From Ectocarpus siliculosus (lineage: Eukaryota; Sar; Phaeophyceae; Ectocarpales; Ectocarpaceae), in assembly GCA_000310025.1 (NCBI GenBank), contig FN648069.1, forward strand, positions 903,299 to 943,302: DNA of 40,004 bases, in the 5' to 3' direction. Shown here piece after piece: positions 7,201 to 32,000 of the stretch. Below the pieces are notes generated by a model that saw only the letters and a program-made list of their open reading frames with translations, had not been told where the DNA came from and did no database searches. Numbering within the stretch: position 1 is the first letter of the stretch; each line of letters begins with the position of its first letter. The position numbers were made by a program, and so were the translations under genes.

Positions 7201-10200
7201 GTGGAGTAATCGAGCTTTGAAGGTCGGTCTAGGGGGGGATGGGGGTACCATCTCTCCGCCTCGTACGGTGCGTGGTTAGTCAAACTATGTATTGTCATGT
7301 AGCGTGCAAGATTGAGCCAAATAAGCGTTGTTGCAGGTGGAACCATGCTGCTACGATTACAGCGCGACGAGCCAGAAGGGGTAAAAATTCAGGTGTACCA
7401 AGGAGAGCCCGAAAGCTCAACGTGCCGCGTCATCCTCTAGACCAAACACGACGCCTTCCCCGTCGCCAACTACATAGCGCAGTTTTGGTGCATGCCTCTC
7501 AAAGGATCAGAAACATGTTTACGACCGACATTTTTCCTTTTTCGTGCAAAATCATCCCTACCAGGAGAAGTTCGAGCAGATCGCGAGGGAGCTACCGCAG
7601 TTGGCCGGCGTCGGCTGCGAAGTGCGCGTCAAGGGCCTAGGCTACAGCGTGCAGAGGGCCAAGGGCAGCACCGAAGACCCCACCGTGGGCGACAACTTGG
7701 TGTCTCTGTGCAAGACCCTCATGTGCCTACCACTCATCGAGTGGCTGAAAAAGGGAAAGGTATCCTGAACATGAGACGCGTTGCACACAAGCTTCCCTTG
7801 ACAACCTGGCAGCAGTGCCCTGGACACAGGGTGTTGCAGATATGTAATAGTAAAGCGCTTATACGTCTCGTGGCCATGGGTGGCGTGGTCGAAATAACTC
7901 AAATGATGCCGCCAGAGCACCGCACAAAGCATCTCCCTATCGGCACCTCACGTGCCCACTTGTTGCTGAAACGGAGAGGACGAAACGAGGGTCACGTTAT
8001 CTTCATTGCCTCCTTAGTTCCGTGTATTTGGTTAAGTCGCAACTCAAAGCTATTCTCCTCGAGGACAGGATTTTTTCGCGGCGTGTTCCCCCACGGGTAT
8101 ATTGTAGTCTACACGCATGGGAAGGCATGGGCACATCGATGCTGGCTGGACCATGGGGTTTCCCACCCTTCCGAAACTCGATACAAAGATAAATTTACGC
8201 TTCGAACGTGTTTGCTGAGAGCGGGATCACCTTCAATACCAACTGGCTTGCTTATAAAGAAGTTTTTCGCTGGTGTGCTGAAAAGCCTGAAAGCGCGGTT
8301 CGTTGACCAACAACACATCGACCCCAAACACGATTGATTGTGCTCGGTGCAGGAGATGGAGACCAAGGTCATCCTGGATGATGTCAACGCCGTGTTCAAG
8401 CCGTCTACCACTACCCTTGTGCTCGGCGCGCCCGGCTCCGGCAAGGTGAACAAAACCGCATATAGAATCAATCGTGCACGCCCTATCCCTTCTTCGCCCA
8501 TATTCTTCACTTGCAAAGATATTTGGACCTGCCTCGCACCGATACTGTTTTTTTGCTCAAGGGCAATTCAGCCTGCTTTCGTGTTCGTTTCACTATAAAC
8601 ATTTCCTGGTAAATTCAGCTCTCCACCACTACCCTCGTGCTCGGCGCGCCCGGCTCCGGCAAGGTGCCACATCCTGAATCAGTATACGCTCAACCAAGCC
8701 CTGTTTCTTCACCCACAAAGGGGTTTGAGATTGCCTCGCGCCGTTGCTGATTTTATTTGACGTCATTTCAGCCTGCTCTTGTTTACTCTAGAAAATCTCT
8801 AGTGGAACACGCACTCCGTGTCAATCATCCCCACCCCTTTTCCTAACGCGTTTCATCCTGCCGTTGTTGAGAACTAATCAACAGTCAACTCTGCTCAAGT
8901 CACTGGCGGGGCTGCTCAAGCACGACGCAGGGCACGTGAACCAGGGCAGTGTCACGGTAAGCATGTTGGCCGTTTTCGTGAAGCCATGGACGAACATTTC
9001 TTGAATGGAAGAAGATATATTCTCGTCGAATATGTAGCTAATACCTTTTTCCGTGAACACCGTTCATCCTGCCCAAGGACGCTGCTAACCGGCCGATCCG
9101 TTTTTTCTAACTGTTAACGGGGTTGTTGGGAATCATAAGACAGGAGTAGACAAACAACAGAAAGGTAGATATAGGTGAAAGGGCAACCCAGGAATCTGCA
9201 TGAAGGGGGCGAGGAACGGTTTTGCAGGAATAAAGTCGGAGCAGGGAGGGCGCTCACCATCTATTGCGGAGTGACGGTGTTTTTAACTTTGCTTTGGTGT
9301 GGAAAAATGTGGGCACATTAAGCATTCTGAAGCCATCGTGAGAGCAGCAATCATCGTTGGAGGAGCTGGCAGGGCGCGTTCGCGCAGCTAAAGATGCCAT
9401 GTTGGGTCGCCCCACCCATGAGTTGCCTGCCAACTGCAAATAGCGCGCTCTCCTACACGTTTTTTGGCCTGAGCTGGGCAGTACTTCCCGGGTAGAGTAA
9501 GATTTCAAATCGAACCAATCTCCTAGGTCTTGACCGTTGCTATGGCCAATAGTACACAGCGCCGGCCGTCAAATGACAGCGCATGGCAGCAGCAGTTTCG
9601 CCAGTGAGGGCTAAGCCGTTTTCGAGTTCCGGCGAGACCTAACCAACACCCCCTCCTGCCGCGGTTACTTCTGTTTTTGCCTTCGCCTTCAAGTACAACG
9701 GGGCCACCAAGGAGTCTGGAAAGTTTTCTTTGCCCAAGGTGGCGCACTTCGCGGAACAGGTCAGAGAACACGTTCGACGTTAACTCGACATGCTGAAACC
9801 GTCCCTCGACATACCGCTTGGGTAAAGGGCGAGGTTTCGTAGGCAGGCACAAGCCGATGCAGACACTAGTGCTTATTTGGATCCGTCGGATTTGTTGTCG
9901 GCGTTCTAGTTCTTACGTTGTTTTCGAAAGAAAACATAAATGTACATAAGTGTGTGACAAAAGGTTTATCTTTCCCAATCGTTGAGCCTCTCGGGCTTAG
10001 GGTTAGGGTCGCTCGCTAATGACCCAGCGCACAGCGTCCGACGAAAATCGGCAGTAGTAGCACAACTGGTTGTCTCTACAACCCAACCTCGTTTCTTAAC
10101 TCAAGATTTGTCGCTGAGCTGACCTCGTTCTATCTCAGCACATCCGGGAGTTCATGTACAATTAGAACGAGTTACGCTTACCTATCCTCAGTTTGACCCT

Positions 10201-12744
10201 CCATGAGGGATTTCACGTAGCCCTCTTTCAAACCAACCTAGAGACATTGTTTCGGTGAGAGAGTATTGAAGTATTGTTTTGGGTCCAACCGCATGACCGT
10301 GGCTGTAGTTCTGGAGAACATGGCAGCTTGCCTCGGGTAGGGCTCCATACCTGACCACCCTGCTAGTCTACCCTTGTATGTGTGTCGAAGATGCTTGTAT
10401 CACTTCTATTAAGGACAGCAGACGAGATCAAGATGCGGCGGGAGAGAACGTGCCGCAGAGCACCAAGCACTCCCACAGAGCCGAACCCGCGGATCAACCA
10501 TAAAACCCAATCCAGGGGACTATCAATTCCTATCTGCGTAGCCACGTCCTACAGTAGTCCCGTTGGAATATGCTCATCCGCTCATGCACACATGAACACC
10601 CCCCCCTTCGGTCCGGAGATATCATCTCTGATACCCGTGCTACACCAAATATCTTCGCGCAACACAAAACGGGCCACCTCCGAAAATCATGTTACGTCTT
10701 TGTTTCTGCGCGCTTTTGCGCATCACGCCGGCCGATGTCTTTTTTTTTGCGTCAAGCGGAATGCCACATTCCGTCCGAAAACCATGTAACATATCTTTGT
10801 TTGCCAATTGACCCTGTGCGGTTTGTCCCTCACGCCGACGCTTGTTTTTTTTTTCGTCAGGCGGATCGCCACCTTCCAACGATGACCGTTCTCGAGACCT
10901 TCAAGTTCGCGTTCGACTCCATGTCTGGTGGTACTCACGGCAGCCTCGTGGCGGAAGAAGGCCTGAACGACGACCAGAAGGACCTGATATCGTGGATGGA
11001 CAGCATGCGTTTCAAGGTGACTTTTGGCAAACCTGCGTTACGTTGCGATGCGCGATTGGGTGAGCTTTTGGCTTCACGTGGAGTGTGATCTGACGATGGG
11101 GTGCACTCTAGTGTTATTTAGTTGCGCATCGAAACGAAACCTTCGATTGATCAAACGTCATATCATATCGAATCGTGTGTATTCACGAACGTACACGTGA
11201 TCGGGACTGTGTTTTCTTGGCGCTAGTGGGAACGATGGGCTATAATGCATGCTGCTATGCATATTGTGTGTGTCAGAGTCAATCCCAGTCGTGGTTGTCA
11301 AACTTTCTTCTCGTTTGTATTTTGCGTCGTTGACAATGTAGGTGGAGATGATTACGCGGAATCTGGGCCTGTTCAACGCTAAGGACACGATCGTCGGCGA
11401 CAACTCCGTCAGGGGGGTCAGCGGAGGAGAACGGAGGCGTGTCACTCTCGGTGAGAACAGAGAGATCGGGGGGGGGGTAGAGGGAGTGAGAGACACAGAG
11501 AGACAGAGACAGAGAAAGAGAGAGGGACAGAGAAGAGGACACAGAGAGACGGAAAGACAGGCAATAGAAGTGAGCAAGAGATTTAAGAGACAGGGAGATG
11601 GGCGGAGAGAGAGTTTGGGGGGGGGGAGAGGGAGGTGATGTTCAAAATATTACCACCATAGCACACCACCATGCCCTGAAGAAGTTATCGCGACAAGTTC
11701 ATATGGCAGCGATCGCATCTCCCAACTTGGGTGCGGGGTACGGCAACCGTAGGAAAGGTACTTTTATTGTCGAGGACACGATAGGCGATAACGGTGTGTT
11801 GAGTTGCTCGCGTGTGTGCCCCCAACGACCGATATAGGCAAGGCGACAACGGCGTGTTGAGTTACTCGCGTGTGCACCCTAACACGAGCGATAGGGAAGG
11901 CGACAACGATGTGTCGAGTTGTTTCGATGTTCCCCTACCGAGCGATAGGCAAGGCGACAATGGTGTGATAAATTGCTCGCGTGTGTTTACCCTAACACGA
12001 GCGACAAACTTGCTGGGTCAGGTGAGATGCTGTGCGGGCCGCAGACGGTGTTCCTGCTGGATAGCATCTCCACCGGGTTGGACAGCAGCACCACTTTCGA
12101 CATCATGAACACGCTCAAGGTACGGCGGGCGGGACAGCGTTGCCCGCTGCAAGAATGTCAGACGCGATGGGAGACGTGTCGATAATGCCTAGTCGATAAT
12201 ATGTAGTCCACGCGGCGTATGGCTGCGAGAGCACGCGCAGGAGCGTGAAGGCCTCGTCCGTACAAAGCGGTTCGGCGGAGGAAAAACAGCAGCATGAGGT
12301 AGAGAGATAAGGGAGGAAACCGTATAAAACTTGTCTTTCAATTGAGCCCAATAATAGTTGTTGTCGGAGGCACCAGAGGATCCGAAGCGCCTTTGACCCT
12401 TCGAAGGTGACGATAGGCTTACGCAGGATGCATGCTTTCCTCTCCCCATCACGACAACCATGCCGTCAGCGAGAGTCGTGGCGAATGGCCCGATGCTGAC
12501 TGAGGCAAAACTGCCGTTGAAGAGTCGAAAAAAAAGCCAAAACCAATACTTGTAGACCCCCGTCGGGCCTGATACTGACCGAGGCAAGACACCGTGAAAA
12601 AAGGATATATAAAGCGAACTTAACCCCCCCCCCCCCCGTTGCTTGGTTTGTTTGTTCAGTCGGCGTCACGCAGCTTCCACAGCACGGTGGTGGTCGCTCT
12701 GCTCCAGCCGCCCCCGGAGGTAATTCACGCGTCTGTTGGGGTTA

Positions 12745-13097: not shown

Positions 13098-16000
13098 ACT
13101 GTTGTTGTGGTGGTGGTGGTGGTGCTGTTGTTGTTGTTGTTGTTTTTGTCATCGCTCAGATGCAACCTTTCTCTTTAGGGAAGGGTATCTCATGAATGAC
13201 GAGTCTATTGAACCAAACTTGGCGATCTTGCATCTCCCTCTGGCCTTTCCTCTCTGCTAGCATACCTATTCTCTCTCAATCTTGACAGCGTAGCTCTTGC
13301 TTAAACGCATTCGATCAATTCGCTATTGTTCTTGCTCGCAGACGTACGCGCTGTTCGACAACATCATCCTCATGTCGGAGGGGAAGATAATTTTCCACGG
13401 AGCTCGCGAGGACGTGGTGCCGTACTTCAACAGCCTGGGGTGGGTGTTGATATTTTTTCTGCGAAACATAAACGAATCACGAAAGACAACAAAGTCACCG
13501 GGGTATCTACAGATATGATTCCAGGGTAGTGTTGCATTACCAACGTGTGGTTCTGCTATCCCCGGACCAGGGGTCTGGCAGTTATTCCACATGTGGTGCG
13601 ATTTATTATTTTGTGATGCCAGGGTGGAAGACGAAGAGGCGGGGAAGCACTATGGGAGAAAGTCACAAGTTGCGAAGCTATGGTAGGGCTTTTGCACGTC
13701 CACAAGTCTGTTTATGCAGCCTATTTAGGTTGGTTTCAACACATGACGTTTGTTGTTGCTGCTGCTGCTGCTGCTGCTGGCGCTGCTGCTGCTGTTTCTG
13801 TTTCTGTTTCTGTTTTTATGAACGTGTTTGTTGCTATTCGCTTCCCATTCAACCCCATCGCAACCTCTTCAGAGCCCCCTGTTTACCGCAAACCCAATCG
13901 GCCCAGAGACGGACCTCTCTGAATAGTCCTATCGTGTTTGCCTCTCTGTACATACACCGTGTCCGTCCATCAGCATGACTTGCCCCCCTCGAAAGGACGA
14001 AGCTGATTGGCTGGTGGAGCTCACGGGTGAGGCAGGGAACGAGTACCGCACTGACATCGAGACAGCGGGAGGGCTTGCCCGAGCCCCCGTAACCTCCGCG
14101 GAGTTCCACGCCAGGTGGCGTGAAAGCGAGGGGGGCAAGGCCATCGATCAGGCGAGACTTCGCGGTGTTGTTGGCGACGTTTCGGGTCGCAAATCTCGCG
14201 ATATATGTCCAAGATGGAAATGCTTGGGCAGGAAGCCCGTGTTTCCCCCCTTGCTCACGCAGTACTTGAGAGGAAGCTAATGTTCCCCTTATACTTGGTA
14301 GGAAGACAATGTTTTTCCCCCCGTACTGCCACCCTCAGGTTGTAGCTGGACGTCTTGCCTCCAATGGATATCCTTCTTGATTATTGTTGTTTATTCGGCT
14401 TATTTTGTGGCGGCACCGTCACCTAGGGTCTCGCGACGATGAACCCCTNNNNNNNNNNNNNNNNNNNNNNNNNNNNNNNNNNNNNNNNNNNNNNNNNNNN
14501 NNNNNNNNNNNNNNNNNNNNNNNNNNNNNNNNNNNNNNNNNNNNNNNNAAAATGCACGCGTCCGAAAGTGTGTTGACCAAGGGCAGTGTATCATAACATA
14601 CATGCATGCAAGTAAGCCCCCCCCCCCCCCCCAAAGAATCCTCGTGAAAAACAATGGCGTTTCTGGCGTTCTGTCGGCAAATCCAGGAGCTGAGGACGGC
14701 GGGAAGTCTGGACGAGGCACCGTGGCCAGCTTTGTACCAGAGGAGATACCCCAAGTCTTGGTGGTACCACCAGAAGCTGTGCTTCGAGAAGAAGTCGATG
14801 CTGATGCTGAGGGACAAGCCGTACATGAAGAGTCAGATCATGAGCGCGCTCGTCATGGGTGAGTTTTTTGCTGGGCGAAAAATCTGCCGAAAAACTCGGT
14901 TCACGAACGAACGTGTAAGAAGGATCCGAAAGAAGGCAGTCTCTTCGCGTGTCCGTCTGCGTCCGTCCGTAGTCCGCGGAGAAGAAGCAGGAACGAAAAA
15001 TGTTACTGTTGTTGTTGTTGTTGTTGTTGTTGTGGTTGTCTTGACAATAATAACCGTTCCGGTCTGCTCAGTACCTTCGATTATCCGTACCGGTCTCACT
15101 TACGAGGACGACTTTTCGTGGTTACAGGCCAACCACCAATAAAGGGTACACATTTTCTAAACATGACATCAAATGCGACAGTAAATAACGAATTGCACTC
15201 GTTGTCGCCACTTTTTCAGGGCTGATCGTGGGATCCATCTTCTACGACCTCGGCCTCTCCGACGCCAATGCCAAGTTCGGAGTGAGTGTTTAGTGCTTAA
15301 CCGATCTCGATGTCGTTGACTAGCTAGAGGCATGCGAGCAGGCCACCACCGCGTTATCTTAGGGCAGTGCTGGAGTATTCTGGATTCGGATGTGCCTAGT
15401 CTGCATGGGGGTACTCATTTGAACGCATGCCCTAGCCGTTAGACCATTGGCCTCGCATCTCTACCATGCCGGCCCTACCATGCCGGGACGGAGCGATATG
15501 CCGGGTTTTCGCCGGCCCAGGCTACGTTTCACAAGGATGGATGAAAAAATTGGCCATTATCCTGCGTGCCAAACCATGGGGGGGGGGGCATAGGCTGTGC
15601 CTTCCTCCAGCACTACAACGTGCGGTGCCTTCCTCCACGCGTACCTTTGGTGATCGCGCCTCTGCTACTACACTAATAACAGAAGGAAGGGCTGGTTCGT
15701 ATTTACGTCCGACCCGGTTAAAATGTTTCGTGACCCCTGATTTTGGGATGGATGTCGTCAATGCCTGGCGTGGTTGTGTTTATTGCTTGTGCGTGTTTCC
15801 GTAGGCTCATGTATTTTCTTGGTCACAACGGCAAGTTTATTTTCCTTGTCCTCGTACCCCTTCTCGAGGTATATATGCTTACAAGAAATGTTATTTCCTG
15901 TCGTTCGCTTAGATTTTGAGCCAACTCCCCTCCCTCTTCCCTTCCACGGACGACGCCTTTTTCACGTGCCACCCCATGCTGTTGTGTTTTTGCGCTTGCA

Positions 16001-18017
16001 GCTCATCTTCTTCTCCCTGCTCTTCCTGTCCATGTCGGGAATGGCCCAGGTGGGTGCGATTGTCCTTCTTTCGGTCGGCTTGAAAGCACGTCCTCGAGAG
16101 AAAAACACACGTGTTCCCATTTCCGAATGTCCTTCTTCTTTCCTTTTTCGGAGTAATGTAGTGCCGATCGATGGCTCGACTTGCGCTGCAAGAATGACCA
16201 GACTCGGCAGCATCGAAAGCTTAGTTTTGGTTGTTCGTCCGTCTTCGGGGCAATGCGTTTCCAACCCTCCAATATTGTCAGTCTTGATCCCCATTCATTG
16301 CCCACGCATCAATTCCAGCCAAAAAATAATTACCCAGAGTGTTTTCCATCAACACCGACGCTGTTTTCGAGACGTTTTCTTGGCGTTTTATTGTTCGTAC
16401 CAGTTGTTCAGCTATGAATGTCGTGCACCCGAGCCGAGGTTGTGGTAGTGACGTCGACCCTGGCTTTGCCTCGCAGTGCTTGTGTCGGATGTCCATACCG
16501 CCGTAGCTTACGTATGACACTTGATGTGCCTGTTTCTGCTGTATCGGTAGCCGTGGTCGTACCCTTGTTTTGTCCTGCCAATTGTTTCTGCTGTATCGGT
16601 AGCCGTGGTCGTACGCTTGTTTGGTCCTGCCAATTGTTTCTGCTGCATCAGTAGCCGTGGTCGTACGCTGTTTTGTCCTGCCAATTGTTTCTGCTGCATC
16701 AGTAGCCGTGGTCGTACGCTGTTTTGTCCTGCCAATCGTTTCTGCCGTGTTGGTGACCGTTGTCGTGCCCGGTTTTTGTCCTGCCAACAAACAACACCCG
16801 CAAAATCATGTTTTGTTGGGCAGGACAAAACAAGGTACGACAACAAACGGTCACCGACGACACAGCGGAAACAAAAATATGCGGCAGTGTCACATCCTAT
16901 TGTGGTCCGTGCATCTGACACGAAAGAACAACACCCGCACAATTAAAACCGAAAGCGGAAAACGTGCGGCACGTGACTGGATGTTGTACTACTGGCACTC
17001 TTGCCCAATCGTTTGCAGATCCCGGGGGCCATCGAGCGGAGGGGGGTGTTCTACAAGCAGAGTCAGGCCGGCTTCTACCCCACCTCGTGCGAAGTCGTGG
17101 CGGACACGCTCGTCAACACTATTCTCACGGTACGAAGGCATACAGTATCATCAGAGGAAGCCGGATCATACCATTGTTATTCTACTGTAGCAAGGACCCA
17201 CGACTATTGTAACAAACTTTTATGGACGTCATTCCAGATACCTAACCCCTTCAATTATGTCGTCGTGAAACCGTCGTCAACGGTTGTGAAACCGTCGTGA
17301 AACGGTGGTGAGACGGTCGTGAAACCATCGGGCAACCGTTGTGAAACGGTCGTGAAACCGTCGTGAAACCGTTGTGAAACCGTCGTGAAACCGTCGTGAA
17401 CCCGTTGTGAAACGGCCGTGAATCATTGTGAAACCGTTGTGAAACCGTCGTGAAACCGTCGTGAAACCGTCGTGAAACAGTCGTGAAACCGTTGCGAAAC
17501 CGTTGTGATACCGTTGTGAACCGGTCGTGAAAGCGTCGTAAAACCTTCGTGAAACCGTCGTGAAACCGTCGTGAAACCGTTGTGAAACCTTCGCGAAACG
17601 GTCTTAAAACCGTCGTGAAACCGGGGTTCGATGTCTCGCAGGTGGTAGCGTCCATCATCTTCGCCCCCGTGGTCTATTTCCTCGTGGGATTCAGCACCTC
17701 CGACAATGGCGCAAGGTTCTTCACCTTCATGGTCATCGGTATGTTTGAAAACCCATCTGTGAGATGGATTTGTTGTGTTCTTCGTAAGAAAAGAAGATAA
17801 AATAACGTACAAGTGTGGATAGAGCAGGCTTCAATATACCTATTTAGCCCTAGGTGGTGCCGTCGAGGCCATGCGGTCGGGAGGTGGAATTGTTTTTTCG
17901 TCGGCGAGGTGGGCGCTTTTTTCTTTTCCTTCCAAAATGAAATAGACTCGTCTCTTCTTTCACATGCCGTAGATGCCGAGAAAGCGACGTTTTTTCGTGA
18001 GTAGATGTGAAGACAAT

Positions 18018-18053
<36 letters not shown>

Positions 18054-19994
18054 AACAATAACAACAACAACAACGGCGGTGAAATTGTCTTGTTTGCTCC
18101 CTTCTCACTTGTGGCAGTGATCGTGACGAACGTGAACGTCACCCAGTACTTCCGGTTCTTGGCGGCGTTCATGCCCAACTTCACGCTGGCACAGGCAAGA
18201 AGAACAGTAGTAGGGTTAGGGTTAGGGTTGGTTAGGGTTAGGGTTAGGGTTAGGGTTAGGGCTAGCAGCCTTCACGGGCAAGAACAGTAGCAGCCTTCAC
18301 AGGCAAGACACGTATATATTAGTAGCCTTCGCAAATTTTCATTATGCGAACGTATTGGATATAGTAAGATATCGGTGGGATTTCAAAGGGGCTACGGTAT
18401 ATTGTTAGGTGTTATGTTTACGAAACCCGCGCATCTCTTTTCCTTAGAACAAACTTCAATTCTTCGCTTACCACTTAGGCAGTCCGGCAAGAACCGCATT
18501 TCGAAACCAGCGAGCACGAGCTAACCGGTACGGACAAAATGATATTCTTTCTGATCGAAAATAAGTTGCCGGTATGGACAAAACTTGTTCCTGCGCCGCG
18601 GTGTTTCCCCTCATCGTGCTCTTTCCCGCCCCGTTGTGTTGCTGCTCATCAATGCCATTTCCAGGGGTTTGCGGGTCTGAGCGTCCTCGTCTGCGTGCTC
18701 TTCTGCGGCTATCTTATCCCCGGCGCCGATGTTCCCGCTTGGTGGATATGGGTGAGCAATTAATTTAGCGACCGAAACCAAACCATCCTATCATTTGACT
18801 GGTCCTACGGTTCCTTCGGCTGACTGGTCTGAGGGTTCGATGTCGGTTTCTAACGCAACCACTGGCTGTCAGCTAGCCGTGCAGTAGCGGGCGGCTGCCG
18901 ACAACGAACTCTTAAGCCCGCTCAAGATAACGGACGTACAAAATCGCCACGAAAACGCGAGTACAGCTCTAGTACCGTTTTAGGCAAGGTGTACGCCGGC
19001 TGGTCTTCAGAAGCGCAATGGTTGGTATGAGTCGTTTCCGTGTACGCTGGCTTTTTGCAGTACTTGGTTGCTTCTGGCCCATGGTGCACCGGTTGAGTTG
19101 TTCATGTCCATGAACGTGCTGCTGCACCCATTCCACTTCGGCCGTGACATACAAGTTTATAATCGCTGCCGGCAGCGATCGCGGAAGCAGCGGCGGCCAC
19201 GGCCAAAATATGGGACTCGTCAAGTTCAGAACACTGTACATTAGCCCGTCGTTTTAGGGCAACCCCCTCTCTGTCCTCGTGTGCGACTCTCTTTGGTAAA
19301 TAAAGTCTAGGACGGGTTTCGTTCCCTTGCAACCGTTCCATGTGAACCCTTCTAGACGGGTTTTGTTCCCTTGCAGGCGTTCCATGTGAACCCTTCTAGA
19401 CGGGTTTTGTTCCCTTGCAGGCGTTCCATGTGAACCCTTCTAGACGGTTTTCGTTCCCTCGCAGGCGTTCCATGTGAACCCTTCTAGACGGGTTTCGTCC
19501 CCTCGCAGGCGTTCTACATGGACTCTGCTAGTAACAATATGACGGTAGAAGTCGTTTCGTTTCAGGCGTTCCATGCAGGCGTTCGTCCTTCTAAGACGGT
19601 TTGCCGTTCCCTTGCAGGCGTTCCATGTGAACCCTCTCACGTGGGCGTTCCGGGCTGCCGTGCTGAACGAGTTCCAGTCTCCGGAGTATGAGGACACGTG
19701 CGGGGCCCCGGACTTAGCGGAGGGAGCTGCGTGTCCCGTTTCGCTTGGACAGGTGGGTTTTGGTTCCTGATGATGCTTGTGCTGTGGTTGTTGTCGTCGT
19801 TGCTGTTGGCGGTGTTGTTCTTGCTGCTGCTGCTGCTGCTGCTGCTGTTATTGCTGCTGTTGTCGTTGTCGTCGTCGATGCGTATGCATATTCGTTTTGT
19901 TCTGCCAAGTTTTGGTCGCGGTAATAAATACTATGGACGTGACGACATGTCAAGCGTTAGAGTTAGAAGAACATCTCGACGATGACCTTCGCGG

Positions 19995-20025
<31 letters not shown>

Positions 20026-23000
20026 CTTTACATCACAAACCGTTCCGGTCTCCGCTCAGTACCTTCTGACATCCGTACCGGTCCAACTGACGCGGACACC
20101 TTCCATTGTCATGGGCCATCTACCCAGAAAGGGTACACAATTCTAGAAATCTCATGGGTTTCCTGGAGACGACATCATCACGTGCTGTCGTTTGGTATTG
20201 ACGGGTTGGCGGATACCGTGGGACTATTTTTGGTAAGAAGAGAGCACTACAAACATTGTCTGCAATGCTGACCGTCTTTCCCATTGATACGTCACCTTCT
20301 TGTTTGTGTGTGTTGCTTGGCAGGTTTACATCGATGCCTACGGGTTTGAGGACGACAAGGTCTACATTTGGGGCGGCATTGCGTTCATTTTCGTGGAGTT
20401 TTTGCTCTGCGCCGCGTGAGTTCCGAAAGGATGGTCGCTCGTCCTTGTTGTCGTTGTTGTTGTTGTAGCTGCACCCGACACCGAGCCGTGGCGTTCTCTG
20501 GTGTGTCGCCACCACGTCCTCGGAAAACCTTTCCTTTCGCACGTCCGAGTCATCATGGTTTGGTTGCATCGCTTCTTCTCCACCCTATTACTACCAGCCT
20601 TGAACCACTCTTATTCCTTGATTTGGTACTCAACGCTGCTGCTGTTCCAGGGCCACCGGCATGGCGTACCAGTTTATCCAGTGGGACTCCTCGGACAGCG
20701 TTCCCATTGCACCCGGCACCGCCGCTGACGAAGATGGCGCTGGGGGCCCGGAGAATAGTGAGTCATTTGTCGTGTCCTGTACGGCGCTATTTTTTTTCCA
20801 TTTTATTGGCGTGGTCACGGGTTGGAGCTCCTACCCGACAGAAATGCTGTGTTTAGCCAATGGGTGAGCGCGGATATAGTAAAGTGAGGGAAACAATAAA
20901 ACTGCTTTTGGTCTCGCCGCGAAGAAGCGCGTTGGTCACACAGAGTGGCCGGTTCCTCGATAATGTCGAGTGCCCGGTACATTGTGCTGGCACTGCTCTT
21001 TATCCGGTGTAGTACCAGTACCGGCACTGTAGGGGCGTGCCCCTTATGATGCCGGGCGGAGCAAAGTTGACCAAACATGAACTCGTTACAATGTTCCAGT
21101 AGGCTCTATGGCAATGTTTTTTTTTCTTTTTGTCTCGCCTGCTTCCCCCTGTACCTCAATGCGATTTTCCGTTTGGCACCCTCTTTTTGTTTTCAGTGAG
21201 TGTCGAGCAGTTCAACGCCCCGGTGGGGAAGCTGAAGCGGCAGGCCTCCCAGCTGGAGGCAGACCTTCCTTTCGAGCCCGTGACAATGACTTTCAGGTAC
21301 GGAACAGATAATTTATCGCATGCAGTAGGCCTGGTACGTACTACTGTGGCTGCCAGCTTCAGAGGGAGACGTGAGAAGGACCGCCGCGGAGGTCAAGAAG
21401 ACAGCCCGCGGTCCTTCGCTTGCGCCCACGTTTTTTTTTGCGTGGACCGCGCTGTTTTATGGGGGGGGGGCGGTGCCAGGCGGGAACAAAAAGGGTATGT
21501 TCTGGGGTGTTTTTTGTGTCAAGTGAACGGAGATACTGTGGTTAGAAAATATAGCCCACATGAAACATTGGTAGCCTCTAGCCATGATTGTTGGGCTCAA
21601 CGCACAAACAGTGGTGGTATCGACCGACCCGACCGACCATGTAGATGGGTCGCTGAAATCCCTTGTTCTCCACTTCTGCATCATTAGCGGTTTCATACCC
21701 CTTTAGGCCGCCTTGACTCTTAGTGTCATCCGTTGTTGTTGCTTTTTCCTCAGTCGAAGCATCGCCTTCGCTGAGCTCGTTTCTTGTGCTGAGCTCGTTC
21801 CTTCTGCCCCAAAGAACGCTTCTTTGCCCTACCGTGCACCCTCTCTTACTGTCTCACCGTGTCGATAACACTTGCACCGCCGCCTTGTTCCACCGCGTCT
21901 TTTGGCCGAACGGCTTTTGTCCTCAGCGACGTTTCGTACAGCGTGCCCCACCCCTCCGGAGACGGCAACCTGGAGCTCCTCTCAGGAATCTCCGGATTTT
22001 GCAAGCCCGGCGAGGTACGCGATCTCTGACATCGACCCAAGTGTTGCTTGCCAGCCTTGTTTTGTGTTACGTTGATATTTCGAGGTAGGTTGACGTCTTC
22101 AATACCTAGGCTGCAAAGTTCCGTGTGCACTCTGGTGTTGGTGTCAAGGTGCAATGTGAATGCTCGAAAAGGCTTCATGACGCAGTGATGGTTGCAACGA
22201 CTGGATGATGCCGGTTTTGCTTCCTGCACCTCTGATAACCGTTTCGTCCTCGTAAACCGCCGACGCAAAAAAAAAGCGCGGATGCTCAAAGAGCATTAGC
22301 CCGTTACCAGATGTCACCCCCCACGGCATGCTCCGCCCTCTCGAGGGCGCGTGGTCTAACATTAAAGGCATGGAGAACATGAGTACGCCTCCCCCGGTTC
22401 CTTGTTTTCAAGATGACGGCGTTGATGGGTTCCTCTGGCGCCGGAAAGACTACGCTGCTCGACGTGCTAGCCGGCCGCAAGACGGGCGGAACGATCACCG
22501 GTGATATCCGCCTCAACGGCCACCCGAAGCAACAGAAGACCTTCACTAGGTACAGTATGCTTCAAGGGTTGTTGCAGCTGGCCTCGTCCAGCCTACTACG
22601 GCGTGCGGGGGTGAGGATTTGTTTGTTTCTCCGTATTCAGTCTATCTCATGCGCGACCGCTTTAAAATCCCGTGCCCTCATTCACTCCGTACCACAGTCA
22701 TCACCCTTTTGGCCGCTTCTATGCTGTTTCGAACGGTGTTGGGGGGTCGCCTTGAGCAAAGACAGCGCCACCCTGTGCCTCTCAGCAACAGGATAGGAAT
22801 GTTCATTTTGCCTTCGTTTTTTCCTATGCTACAGTGGGGGAAAATCAGGTTCTCACTCGCGCGGATGTCAGGGTCTCGCGATGATTGTTTCGACACTGCG
22901 GCCTGCACGACGAGGAATATCCAACAAACTCCCTCGCCCCGTGCGATTGTGTTGTTTTCCCGTGTGCTCTGTCGGCCAGGGTTGCTGGCTACGTGGAGCA

Positions 23001-26000
23001 GCAAGACATGCACTCAACGGTTGTGACGGTGAAAGAGGTACGGTGGAAACGGGGGAGACACATTGCAGGCTTCGTTGGAGTTGCGTCCTTGAGGGAATCG
23101 AAATGAACCTGCAATCGAACCAACAATTCTCCAAATTCGATTCATGGGTACATCTCGGAGCCCCTGCCCATGTAGGCAATGTGCACAGACCGCCACGCAT
23201 GCTAAACTGTCCCTGCCGGCAGACGTACTGACAGGGACGTTGGCACCTTGAATGATCCGCGCGAATGGAAGCATTGTGACGTTGGTGCGGTGTTGCTTTG
23301 AGTGGGCTCATCTAGGCGTCACGCCTGTTAGTTGACGCAAACATGCTTTGCCATGGCTGATTTTTTCACACGGACGAGACCATGAGACCAAGTTTCTGCA
23401 CACCCTTTCCGTAGGTGCGTATGTAGCAACGTTGATTCCCTTTGTCATGGAGAACGCCAGCCCCCGCCGATTTTGTGGCACTTTTTTCACTTCGCAAGGG
23501 TGATTATTCTGGGTGATTGTTTCGGTTTTTGTTTGTCGAACAGGCTCTCATGTTCAGCGCAACGATGCGGCTGGACAACTCCTCTGTCAACAAGAACCGC
23601 CGTGAGGAGTTCGTCGACAGCATACTCTCGGTGAGCTTTCTTTCTCTTCGCCTGCATCGTCAATGAGGTGTTGCCTTGTGAATCGGTGAAGGTTTCGTGT
23701 GTCCCGGGAGGAAGGAGGCTGACCGTTGTGGCTTCCAGCTCGCGTCTCGTTTTCCGTCTACCGGACAACGGGATGAGTATGGTGCAAACGACTACAAGGA
23801 ACGTAGAGAGAAAGCCCTGCCACCGGCGAAACAGATTGGTGGTGAAGGTAGTTGATTCTGTCGTGTAGGGGGTTGCACAGGAGATGTCCTCATCGACGCA
23901 TTTTTCTTGATTTTTTCCACGCGCCTCCGCGACCCTCTGCCTCATCGGCAACTGTGCCAAACTTTTTTTGACCGGTTTACAAGCACTTTCCAAGCAGGCT
24001 CAGTCAAGTCCGACCTACCTGTATTATGACTCCCGGGACCCACGGCCTGCCTTGTCTCGAGGCAAACACGACTTTTTATGCTTCTGTCCTCTTTTCTCGT
24101 CCCAGATGCTGGAGCTGGACGTGATCAGCGACCGGCTGATCGGCAGCGACGAGGAGGGCGGCTTGTCCCTCGAGCAGCGGAAGCGGACCACGCTAGGCGT
24201 TGAGCTGGCCGCGAACCCGAGCATCGTCTTCTTAGGTGCGTGCGACGACTGACGCCAAGCGCGCTACAGTACAACAATCGTTTACAGTTTTTCCGACAAC
24301 CTCGCAACGAATAGTGGCACATGATACATGACACATGGTACAAATGCAGTAAAAGTAGCGGAGAATGCGTTGTGGCACATGACCCACCTGCCAAATCGCC
24401 GAGCAGCATGCTCTTTTGGATGGAATGAAGACCTCGAATCATGTTCTATCCGCATGTGAAAGTTCAGTATGGATTAGCGAAGAATCCGTCATGTTACATG
24501 ATCTACCCGGGCTCCTTTTTTCCAATCCCCGAGCAGCATGCGCCGCATTTGGATGGAATGAAGGACTCGTGGCGGGCAACTACATTGCGAAGACCTCATC
24601 ACTTTTTTTGTTCTTGTTTCTTACAGAGACAATATATATTGTGAACTGCAGGCACTGCAGGCTGATTGAACTTACGGGGGTCATCATCGACCCTCGGGTA
24701 TCTTCGCTGCTGTAGCTCCTCTTTCCCCCCCCGAAAAAAAATTGGTTCCAGTATTCGCAACCCCCGTGCTTCAATCTGTCCCACGCGTTCCGCATAGAGT
24801 CAAGGAGGGGAAGGGGGCTCTTTCCCCAAGCAATGGCTTTGCAAGCCCGTTCGTGTGAATATTGGCCGTTCCTTTGAAGGTCCCCTTCTCTTCGCGTTGA
24901 TCGTACGCGTAACGGGCGGCGATATATCAGAACCGCGAAAACAGTCTGGGGATTGAGTCACGTTCGGGCCGCCCTTCCCCCGTTTGACCGTCCGGGTCAC
25001 AGGATTCGCATGCGGTGTCCCACGTGGACGGTTCTGAGTTTCAACCCCGGGTTCGGGTTGTGCGGTGCTTGCAATAAAAGTATCGAAGGGATGTTTTTGC
25101 CTTTGACCTAGGATTGGACGGGTTGGGTCATCTGTAATAGCAACTTTACGACCGCAGGGAGATTATTGAGCATTGGCAATGTTATGCACCGCAGTGTGTT
25201 TGACAAACGTCCAACGATACTTAGAGTGGTCCTCCCGTTCCTGTCCTTCCTCTTTTTGCCCGAGGATAATCGCAGATGAGCCAACGTCCGGCCTAGACGC
25301 TCGCTCGGCGCAGGTGGTGATGCGCGCCATCCGCAAGGTGGCCGCCACTCAGCGCGCCGTGATCTGCACCATCCACCAGCCGTCCACCTACCTGTTCGAG
25401 ATGTTCGACGCGCTGCTGCTGCTCAAGAAAGGGGGACAGGTCGTCTTCTTCGGGCCTCTGGGAGAGAACAGCACAAACCTCATCTGCTACCTCCAGGTTA
25501 AAAAAGACGAACAATGATGGGTTCCTTGTTATTGCTTGATAAAGTTAGCATAAACAGTTGACAGGGGAGGAATAGCTACACAACCTCATCTGCTACCTCT
25601 AGGTTAAAAGACGAACAATGATAGGTTCCTTGTTGATGCTTGATAAAGAAGTATAAACAGTTGATGGTATTTTTCTGGGAGAAACAACTATAAAACCTCA
25701 TCTCCTACCTCCAGGTCAAAAGGTGGACACCAATAGCTGCTCTTTCATCATGCTAGGAGCTACACGTGATGGTGTGGTCGTTTTGCTTGCTGCTATGCAA
25801 ACGAAGACGATTCCTCCAATGTCACATGGTTGCGGTGGTTTTTCATTGCCCCCACTCCGCGCCCTCCCTCACACCTCTGCTGCTACCGCGGGCAATTGAT
25901 TGGTTCTTGGTGTACAGTCCATCCCCAACACCGTTCCGATCCGTGATCACGTCAATCCGGCAACGTGGATGCTGGAGGTTATCGGTGCTGGCACCACCGG

Positions 26001-29000: not shown

Positions 29001-32000
29001 GAGAGACAACTTCAGTCAGCATATTCAGGGTAGACTCTTTGACGACACCGGTAGCTCGATGATCATTGCGAGCCGGCGGTCCCAGTCGGCAGCAAGAGGA
29101 CACCTTGGCAAGATGCGCAGCAGCCATGCTTTCATATTTTGTTTGTTGTGAAATCGCTAACCCCCCTACCTAGCCATAAACAGCTCAAGAGCGATTGATG
29201 GCATCTGTCTCCCAGCTTCGTTTCATCATTTTTGCGCGCTTGATGTGTTCCTCAAACCTACAGTTCTGATATTTTCTCGATCCAGCGCTTCACAGCAATC
29301 ATCCCGCGCACCACCCTGCGACCTTCCCCGCCACACGGTGTTTGAGAACAGGCCGCCAACATGTACAGCGTGCGTTCGTACGCCATCGGATACGCGGTAG
29401 CGGAGCTGCCGTACATCCTCTTCATCTCGCTGGCCTTCTGCTCGATCTTCTACTGGATCACGGGCCTAGCCGACTCGGCCGACCAATTCTTCATGTACTG
29501 GTGAGGAGACGACCAGTAAGCTAGCCGTAACCAACGTCTCTCTCTAACCAACGTCTCTCTCAAGCGGTCATGATATATACTAGCTCGGGGTCGGTAGCCC
29601 CCCGACCTCATGTCTTTTTTTTTTTTTTACCACAGCAGCTTCACAAGCGCACATTGCCGCAGGGGCTTGGCAACCGCAAGTTACCACGTCTCTCAAGCGT
29701 TCATAATATCGTGGGGGTTCGTTGTATCGACATGTACGCCATGAAGGGGTTACACAGTGGTAAACCGCTCGGAATCCGATTGTATTTTGAGACACCATTG
29801 TCCGATGACCAAGCGCAAAGGGAGTGTGTGCGCAGTGCCGTTTAGTATATGGGTGCCGCGCGCTCGCACATGGCTTGCTCATTTCCGTGAGGAACTCAAC
29901 CCTACTCTTTAGATGTTTTTTCTAGGCACGTTCACGCCCTCTTTCGGTATTTTCACTGCACGACGCACTCCTCTGTTGCTGCGGTCTCCTCGCGAATGAA
30001 ACCAGGCTCTACTTCCTTCTGTGGACGATGTTCATGGTCTTCACAGGAATGATGTTCGTGATGGTAAGGCTGCGTTCCCGTTTCGAGAACAGACAACATG
30101 CAGCTTGTGTGTTTGAAATATACATTTGTTTTCTTCACCAACGTCGGGGCTGTTCGCACGTGGTACGTATTAGTTGAGGAATTGGATGCCATGCTTCTGC
30201 TACGATTGAAGATTCTTGCCACTACGTTGTAGTCAAGAGAGGTAGACTCTGTCTTCAAGGTCGTTGCCTTCAGTACCAATTAACTTTTTCCTGGCACATG
30301 ACGTACCAGCGCTGCATGTTGCGACGAATATGTCGGCCGTCGAGCTCCCGAGTTATCTCTTTGCACATTGATTTGCTTCCCACTGACGCTGGGGTGTGGA
30401 GTATTGTCTTCGAAGCGCCAGCGCTACTGCACGTGTTGCGAAGCGTTTCTAGGCCGTCGAGCTCTCTAATTACCTCTTCACGCACGCTATTTATTTGTAT
30501 CCCGCTGACATTTGGGTATGTTGTCGCGGTTCATGGGAACGTTGCCGTGTGTTTTTGGTCAAACTCGTCCTTCGAGGCGACACAGTGTCTTCGCACCTAT
30601 GCATACGGCACGATGTTTGCGTTCTGCCTCTAGGTTTGTGGGCCAGATATTGAGGCGCGAGTTGTTCCAGTCCACCCCCTGTTTTCACCCAGATTGTGTG
30701 GTGCCATAACATTGATTCACATGCGCAGCGTAGGTGACACAAGATACCACACCCCCTGGACCGATTGTCAAAGCTCCAGCCCCACGACGAAAAGGGTGCT
30801 AAATGAAACCATAATTTTGGAAAGCTCTCGACGATCGTCGCCGTTTTCGGCGGTGCCCCTCTTTGTCTTGAGGAGAAATCGAGCTTTGAGAATCGATCGG
30901 GGGCGTGTGGTGCCTTTAACGGGACCGATGGCAGACGAGCTGCTTGTTCCCCTTGCCGACTGATGCACATTCGCTGTCCAGACGGCAGCAGGGCTTTGAA
31001 TGCTATATCACAGACGAGCTGCTTGCGCCCACTGCCGTGTTCCCTGTTCAGACGGCAACATTACTTTGAGCGCCAAAAACGGAACGTTCGTGTTGCTTTC
31101 GCAGGTTCTGCCGAACACCCAGGTGGCGCAGACCCTGGCTGGCGCCCTGTCTTCCATGTTCAGCCTCTTCGCCGGCTTCCTCATCAGCCCCGCCAAGATT
31201 CCTGATCCGTGGCTTTTCGCCTTCTACCTGAACCCTTTGCACTATGTCGTCGAGGTGAGCAGCCATGCATTCGGTATCGCTCGGTTACTGCTTCTGAGGA
31301 TCACTGCAGGCATTCCCGATGACACACCAAACCACTTCTCAAAGTCGACAACGGGGAGTCCAACAAAGTCTTCATTTACATCTGCCTGTGCTGTACATCA
31401 CCCACCAGTGTTTTGTTTTGCACGCAGCAACTCGACCTCTACCCGAATCCTACCCCCAGTTCCTTTTTTTTTTTTTTATTGGCGTATTTTTTATATGATC
31501 TGGGTACCGTGGCACTACGCTTGCTTCCAACCATGTCCGCTTCGCTCTGAATTCCATTGCATTCCATTGGATTCCATCTGGTGGAAATCGTCACGAAGTA
31601 CTAAGCGCTCGACTTGCTGCTCCCCAACGTTTTCCCGCCAACGCTGCTGCTGCCTGCCTTTCCATGGTGCATGTCGCGGAATCTGCCACTCTTCGTTTGC
31701 ACCCCCTCGGGGGACTCAATGGCCATCGATGTGCCAACGTTGACGCCAACGACGAAACTTTCGCGTGGCGGCACTTGGACTTGACCCGCCGCACTACCCC
31801 TGGGCGAAACGTCCTCCGTTGACAACGTCCACATCACTGTGGGAACGAAGGGCATGGTGAGAAGTGAAATATTGAGGCCTTTGATTGTCCCCGCTGCTCC
31901 TGCTGTTGCGAGTTCAAGGATGCAGATTGACACAGCTTGGTCTTCCTGTAGGAAATGACGAGAAACGAAGCCCGGCGTCGCTTGAATGACCTTGCAAAAC

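What the first reader, a model, noticed from the sequence alone, without database searches (positions are those of the whole stretch)
19311..19637. 44-bp array of decoy acceptors before exon 21
Five units of exactly 44 bp each contain a pyrimidine-rich stretch, CTTGCAG or CTCGCAG and the first 17 or so bases of exon 21; four of them keep the AG. The real exon is the last copy. Since 44 is not a multiple of three, splicing to a decoy reads AFHVNP and then reaches an in-frame TGA within the next unit, so most decoy use should give a truncated message. The array could be a splicing-efficiency switch (unproductive splicing) or neutral slippage. Unit conservation suggests it is recent.
Basis: partly seen in the sequence, partly recalled or inferred. 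Interest (0 to 1): 0.75.

Follow-up and report, generated by a model that had tools for sequence, protein, structure and literature searches.

The report
Repeated false splice sites before exon
In a transporter gene of the brown alga Ectocarpus, the start of one exon has been copied several times into the intron before it, leaving a row of look-alike splice sites that most likely is a repeat accident the cell tolerates, not a switch.

Summary
The array is real. Five 44-bp units (19311-19530), four with an intact CAG|G, precede exon 21 of a full-size ABCG/PDR transporter gene of Ectocarpus siliculosus. The reading frame is intact and the database protein joins at the real AG, 19617. By a splice-site matrix from this gene family the decoys are as strong as the real site (11.1-13.1 against 11.1 bits); only 2 of 936 AGs in 35 other introns of the gene reach 11. 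A paralog about 154 kb away, also open, has the dead unit, one unit and the two degenerate copies, so the window's gene holds three extra, nearly identical units. But the outcome of the two shared proximal decoys flips between paralogs through a 1-nt indel, AG retention is what neutrality predicts, and paralog C lacks the array. I read it as a recent minisatellite born from tandem duplication of the intron-exon boundary, probably tolerated because exon definition favours the AG nearest the donor. A regulated unproductive-splicing switch is possible but unsupported without RNA data.

The parts
18665..18751 (+). Exon 20 (…GADVPAWWIW), ends in phase 0, donor GTGAGC
   Evidence: Exon model; present in database protein P0019
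18752..19617 (+). Intron 20, 866 nt, unusually similar to the paralog's intron (86.5% of 703 aligned columns)
19311..19354 (+). Unit 1, AG lost (CAACC); the same lesion is in paralog B
19355..19398 (+). Unit 2, decoy AG end 19376, matrix score 12.1
19399..19442 (+). Unit 3, identical to unit 2, decoy AG end 19420, score 12.1
19443..19486 (+). Unit 4, decoy AG end 19464, score 13.1
19487..19530 (+). Unit 5 (degenerate 3' half), decoy AG end 19508, score 11.1; counterpart in paralog B
19554..19583 (+). Two degenerate acceptor copies, AG ends 19565 (score 6.6, frameshift) and 19578 (score 7.2, in-frame +13 aa); both shared with paralog B
19590..19617 (+). Real acceptor region TCTAAGACGG…CCCTTGCAG; CTAAG at the edge of the 22-nt AG-free zone is a possible branch site (inferred, weak)
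19618..19752 (+). Exon 21 (AFHVNPLTWAFRAAVLNEF…SLGQ), 135 nt, reaches into PF01061 ABC2_membrane

Best explanation
The array is an intronic minisatellite made by tandem duplication of the intron 20/exon 21 boundary: about 26 nt of intron end with the CAG, and the first 18 nt of exon 21. An older round gave the units shared by paralogs A and B. A recent round added three near-identical units in A (or B lost them). The real AG at 19617 stays the productive site, probably because it is the acceptor nearest the exon 21 donor and the only one directly joined to the full exon, as exon definition would favour with flanking introns of 866 and 571 nt. Decoys are probably used at low level; messages from the array decoys carry early stops and would be cleared by nonsense-mediated decay. 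The array is thus a tolerated splicing load, not a selected switch. Shown: anatomy, decoy strength, paralog comparison, stop codons, UPF1/UPF2 domain exons in the genome. Inferred: exon definition, low decoy use, decay.
For: Array and shuffles. Open gene; database protein of Ectocarpus siliculosus matches my model except for two residues near the C-terminus and joins at the real AG. Paralog B, open over the mapped core exons, has the older units only. Paralog C without array. Units 2 and 3 identical. The outcome of homologous decoys flips: A 19565 frameshift and 19578 in frame; B 23426 in frame and 23439 frameshift. AG retention 4 of 5 against 4.4 expected from unit divergence. None of 7 homologs with 16-64 residues read upstream of the exon shows a unit copy. 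Boundary copies recur in gene A at 4 of 72 boundaries tested (acceptors of core exons 5 and 18, donors of 2 and 27), in B at 1 of 72, with 0 of 4900 control comparisons. Exon-proximity rule: passages of PMC9225289.
Against: The decoys score as high as the real site, so non-use is not self-evident and substantial decoy use would not surprise. This intron is the best conserved of 36 between the paralogs, which could mean function, although local gene conversion explains it too. No RNA or strain data.
Confidence: 0.72

Rival explanations
1. Unproductive-splicing switch: a regulated share of transcripts joins exon 20 to a decoy, meets a stop and is decayed, setting transporter output; unit number tunes it.
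For: Four decoys as strong as the real site; all four give stops, with 61-319 nt left to the exon 21 donor; UPF1 and UPF2 domain exons are in the genome. Non-productive sites that lower expression under stress are known in yeast (abstract of PMC3983031).
Against: Decoy number and coding outcome differ between paralogs; AG retention is neutral; no array in paralog C; no expression data.
Confidence: 0.12
2. Extra acceptor copies help recruit the splicing machinery to this intron end (landing pads), raising use of the real site.
For: Repeated pyrimidine-rich stretches, each scoring like a real acceptor.
Against: The real acceptor scores well on its own (94th percentile of 82); paralog B has an open frame with fewer units.
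Confidence: 0.05
3. Proximal decoys make a minor in-frame isoform: +13 aa in A (AG 19578), +17 aa in B (AG 23426 of my reversed B contig).
For: Both are open and in frame; B 23426 scores 10.2, 83rd percentile.
Against: Different AGs and different inserted peptides in the two paralogs; A 19578 is only at the 45th percentile.
Confidence: 0.06
4. Assembly artefact in unit number.
For: Tandem arrays are hard to assemble, and the window has a 100-base run of N elsewhere (14449-14548).
Against: Units differ from each other, unit 1, unit 5 and the degenerate copies have counterparts at the separate paralog locus, and no N lies in the array.
Confidence: 0.05

Closest known systems
Human ABCA7 intron 18 VNTR (PMC5954066, passages read)
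   Same: Tandem array at an exon edge that carries a splice-site sequence; use of a repeat copy retains one unit, shifts the frame and gives an NMD target; by coincidence also an ABC transporter.
   Different: Donor side, 25-bp units, about 12 to 427 copies, length effect and isoforms measured in people; here acceptor side, 44-bp units with exon sequence, no RNA data.
Internal tandem repeats at exon-intron boundaries of human segmental-duplication paralogs (PMC2812944, passages read)
   Same: Minisatellite units (on average 30 bp, 4 copies) that vary between recent paralogs and can fall on exon-intron boundaries.
   Different: There the repeats made new introns or isoforms with RNA support; here the exon boundary is kept and the copies lie wholly in the intron.
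Non-productive alternative splice sites of Saccharomyces cerevisiae (PMC3983031, abstract and section list only)
   Same: Alternative sites giving stop codons and NMD.
   Different: Those were seen in RNA; I saw nothing on repeat copies in what I read.
Cis-competition between duplicated splice sites in minigenes (classic experiments, recalled, no call)
   Same: Identical sites in cis, one with the full exon.
   Different: Engineered constructs; this is a natural array.

Membership tests
Splice-site-bearing minisatellite at an exon-intron boundary | Tandem units of minisatellite length that include a splice-site sequence | tested here: met
   44-bp units with CAG|G and 18 nt of exon; decoy scores 11.1-13.1
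Splice-site-bearing minisatellite at an exon-intron boundary | Unit number varies between related copies | tested here: met
   Three more units in A than in paralog B
Splice-site-bearing minisatellite at an exon-intron boundary | Unit number varies between individuals | not testable with these tools
   One assembly only
Unproductive splicing (AS-NMD) switch | Alternative product carries a stop codon placed to trigger decay | tested here: met
   All four array decoys; stops 61-319 nt before the exon 21 donor. The decoy 19578 outside the array is open.
Unproductive splicing (AS-NMD) switch | NMD factors encoded | tested here: met
   PF09416 (3 exon matches) and PF04050 (1 match) above cut-off; domain matches only, no activity shown
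Unproductive splicing (AS-NMD) switch | The unproductive event or its outcome is conserved in relatives | tested here: not met
   Outcome flips between A and B; no array in C; no unit copy in 7 of 7 homologs with readable upstream residues
Unproductive splicing (AS-NMD) switch | Regulated use of the alternative site | not testable with these tools
   No RNA data
Full-size ABCG/PDR transporter (host gene) | Two ABC_tran and two ABC2_membrane halves, NBD first | tested here: met
   Pfam hits of window exons to PF01061 and PF00005; P0019 named pleiotropic drug resistance transporter, with PF00005, PF01061, PF19055 listed; domain order read from the protein, two Walker A exons

The most novel reading that the evidence does not exclude
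Unit copy number acts as a rheostat: a row of equally strong decoy acceptors diverts a set share of transcripts of a PDR transporter into decay, and the two paralogs have been tuned apart by gain of three units.
Probability: 0.1. Interest if true: 0.75.

Novelty: new member of a known kind. Interest (0 to 1): 0.36.

Why it matters
It is a natural competition experiment: several near-identical acceptors of equal strength before one exon, and a paralog with fewer. Junction counts from Ectocarpus RNA-seq would show whether this brown alga chooses acceptors by scanning from the branch site (first AG) or by exon definition (AG nearest the donor). It also shows how boundary duplications may be absorbed in an intron-rich genome.

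Tried and rejected
Branch-site argument. Decoys have CTAG where the real site has CTAAG. In 82 acceptors CTRAY is enriched only modestly, at -60 to -41 (15 starts against 1-8 in the other 20-nt bins). In A's intron the only CTRAY are at 18823 and 18853, more than 500 nt before the first decoy and more than 700 nt before the real site, so this cannot explain the choice and was dropped.

Unit as a 9-nt microexon (GCGTTCCAT|GTGAAC). The donor scores at the 1st percentile of 87 donors. Rejected.

Embedded RNA gene. In 16000-23000 there were two Rfam matches below their gathering scores, neither in this intron. Intron as a dispersed repeat: its first 569 bases match only A and B; the array region matches A, B and, by exon 21 sequence only, C. 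That search skips simple and very common words. Both rejected.

A survey of boundary duplications in other gene families was not done: no annotation was available. The genome search with the protein gave 33 matches, all in A, B or the C54 locus (32 of 146 candidates scored), so no further family member was found to widen the count. In C 0 of 40 boundaries had a copy, but several mapped C boundaries were off the AG or GT, so that count is weak.

Literature. Seven of ten searches used (one search was rejected for an illegal character). No title or abstract start in those listings described this array or an acceptor-side case in a brown alga. In PMC11378527 (brown-algal ROCO genes, passages) alternative splicing of tandem exons is described and NMD is not mentioned. 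These are statements about these searches only.

Full report
What it is in. The window lies at C476:903299-943302 of a 189-Mb genome. The gene on the + strand is a full-size ABCG (PDR) transporter. My exon model has 37 core exons from 7565 to 33341, in frame, 1329 aa, with one stop at the end. A database protein of 1443 aa (P0019), named pleiotropic drug resistance transporter of Ectocarpus siliculosus, is listed at 100% identity and coverage, and its contig length (1,139,494) equals that of C476. Compared directly it has 112 further N-terminal residues and one difference, two extra residues (GM) near the C-terminus, which fit a 6-nt microexon that my model left out. It reads …PAWWIW|AFHVNPLTWAF…, so the database protein joins at the AG ending at 19617. 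I saw the protein, not the gene annotation or any RNA reads.

The array. TRF finds 44 bp x 4.7 copies at 19306-19514, 94% matches, no indels. The core occurs 5 times in the window, the real exon included, against 0 in 100 shuffles. Units 2-5 keep the AG; unit 1 reads CAACC.

Decoy strength. From 82 acceptors of the three family members (exon 21 and its counterparts left out) I built a matrix of positions -20 to +3. Scores: 19464 13.1; 19420 and 19376 12.1; 19508 11.1; real 19617 11.1; 19578 7.2; 19565 6.6. With a matrix from gene A alone (36 acceptors) the array decoys score 12.6, 12.6, 12.9 and 10.4 against 11.8 for the real site. Of 936 AGs in the 35 other introns of gene A (first 30 nt and the acceptors themselves left out) only 2 reach 11. 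The decoys are therefore unusual and strong. The matrix is small and includes paralogous sites, so percentiles are rough.

Consequence of use. Decoys 19376, 19420, 19464 and 19508 stop after 18, 18, 25 and 60 residues; 19565 also stops; 19578 stays open and adds 13 residues. The array stops lie 61-319 nt before the exon 21 donor, a place where decay would be expected by the usual exon-junction rule (recalled). UPF1 and UPF2 domain exons exist in the genome.

The paralogs. Gene B lies on the same contig, opposite strand, about 154 kb away. All 37 core exons map to it; 36 of 37 have an AG at the mapped start (in core exon 32 the AG is 2 nt further on), 35 of 36 a GT or GC at the mapped end (core exon 20 is off), and the two GC-AG introns are shared. 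Joined with that one 2-nt shift, the mapped exons of B read open to a single final stop. Its intron has the dead unit 1, one CTCGCAGG unit, the two degenerate copies and the exon, so A has three extra units. Units 2 and 3 of A are identical. Gene C on C54 has a plain acceptor and no array. Fourfold sites of A and B differ at 147 of 594.

Evidence on selection. (1) A 1-nt difference just before the exon (TTTGCCG in A, TTTCCG in B) flips the outcome of the shared proximal decoys: A 19565 frameshift and 19578 in frame; B 23426 in frame and 23439 frameshift. A selected outcome should not flip. (2) Given 6.2% divergence among units, 4.4 of 5 AGs should survive by chance; 4 did. Five units are few, so this only says that nothing asks for selection. 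(3) Of 18 homologous pieces found, 15 show the exon 21 motif; 7 of these carry 16-64 residues before it that look like read-through of intron, and none contains a translated unit copy. The other 8 have exon 20 or fewer than 14 residues before the motif and say nothing. That the residues are intron is inferred. (4) Boundary copies (at least 23 of 30 bases) are found in gene A at 4 of 72 boundaries: acceptors of core exons 5 and 18, donors of core exons 2 and 27; in B at 1 of 72 (core exon 18); in C at 0 of 40; mismatched controls in A and B 0 of 4900. Those found all lie on the intron side, as expected if only such copies are tolerated.

Against my reading. This intron (core number 17) is 86.5% identical between A and B over 703 aligned columns, the highest of 36, while 30 of the 36 align at 55% or less. 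Core intron 22 is 82.5% and core intron 2 80.7%. This may be gene conversion: fourfold divergence in core exons 17-19 is 5 of 44 against 142 of 550 elsewhere, Fisher P = 0.03, a tract that I chose after seeing the intron. But the exons beside core intron 22 lack that signal (12 of 46), so constraint cannot be excluded. And equal decoy strength leaves real room for sizeable decoy use.

How the real site could win. PMC9225289 (passages) reports for human genes that when flanking introns exceed about 250 nt, sites closest across the exon are favoured, and that for 3' sites the strong upstream preference seen with short introns is reduced. Here the introns are 866 and 571 nt and the exon 135 nt. 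Whether brown algae follow this is unknown; this locus would test it.

Known kind. The closest cases are the ABCA7 donor-side VNTR (PMC5954066) and tandem repeats at exon-intron boundaries of human paralogs (PMC2812944). This is an acceptor-side example in a brown alga: new member of a known kind.

Noticed in passing
window 31851-31856: Likely 6-nt microexon GGCATG (GAAG|GGCATG|GTGAGA), giving the residues GM that the database protein has and my model lacks; the same 6 nt in the same setting occur in paralog B, and GM is also in homologs P0022 and P0025.
   Followed up: partly
window 8619-8663: Partial copy of core exon 2's end (Walker A, LSTTTLVLGAPGSGK), 45 nt and in frame, flanked by CAG and GT, about 170 nt after exon 2; both sites weak (7th and 9th percentile); no such copy found in paralog B.
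   Followed up: partly
window 25476-25714: End of core exon 27 plus donor (ACCTCATCTGCTACCTCCAG|gttaaa) is repeated at 25602 and 25714: a donor-side boundary duplication.
   Followed up: partly
window 10720-10860: Degenerate copy of the core exon 5 acceptor region about 105 nt upstream, AG end 10756, score 7.6 against 13.0 for the real site.
   Followed up: partly
window 18752-19617: Whole intron 86.5% identical to the paralog's, with about 60 identical bases from 19083; 30 of 36 introns are at 55% or less. Conversion or constraint is unresolved.
   Followed up: partly
L011 (C476:1074981-1078298): In paralog B the same intron carries donor-side duplications of about 130-140 bp, one copy with a decoy donor GTGAGC scoring equal to the real donor (8.8).
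   Followed up: partly
window 14151 and 18194: Two GC-AG introns in gene A, both shared with paralog B.
   Followed up: no
window 11783-12004 and 17261-17623: 58-bp and 11-bp arrays that end 17-18 nt before the starts of core exons 7 and 15; repeats seem to crowd splice sites in this gene, not tested against chance.
   Followed up: no
window 18211-18265: Interstitial telomere-like (TAGGGT)n array just after the GC donor of core exon 16.
   Followed up: no
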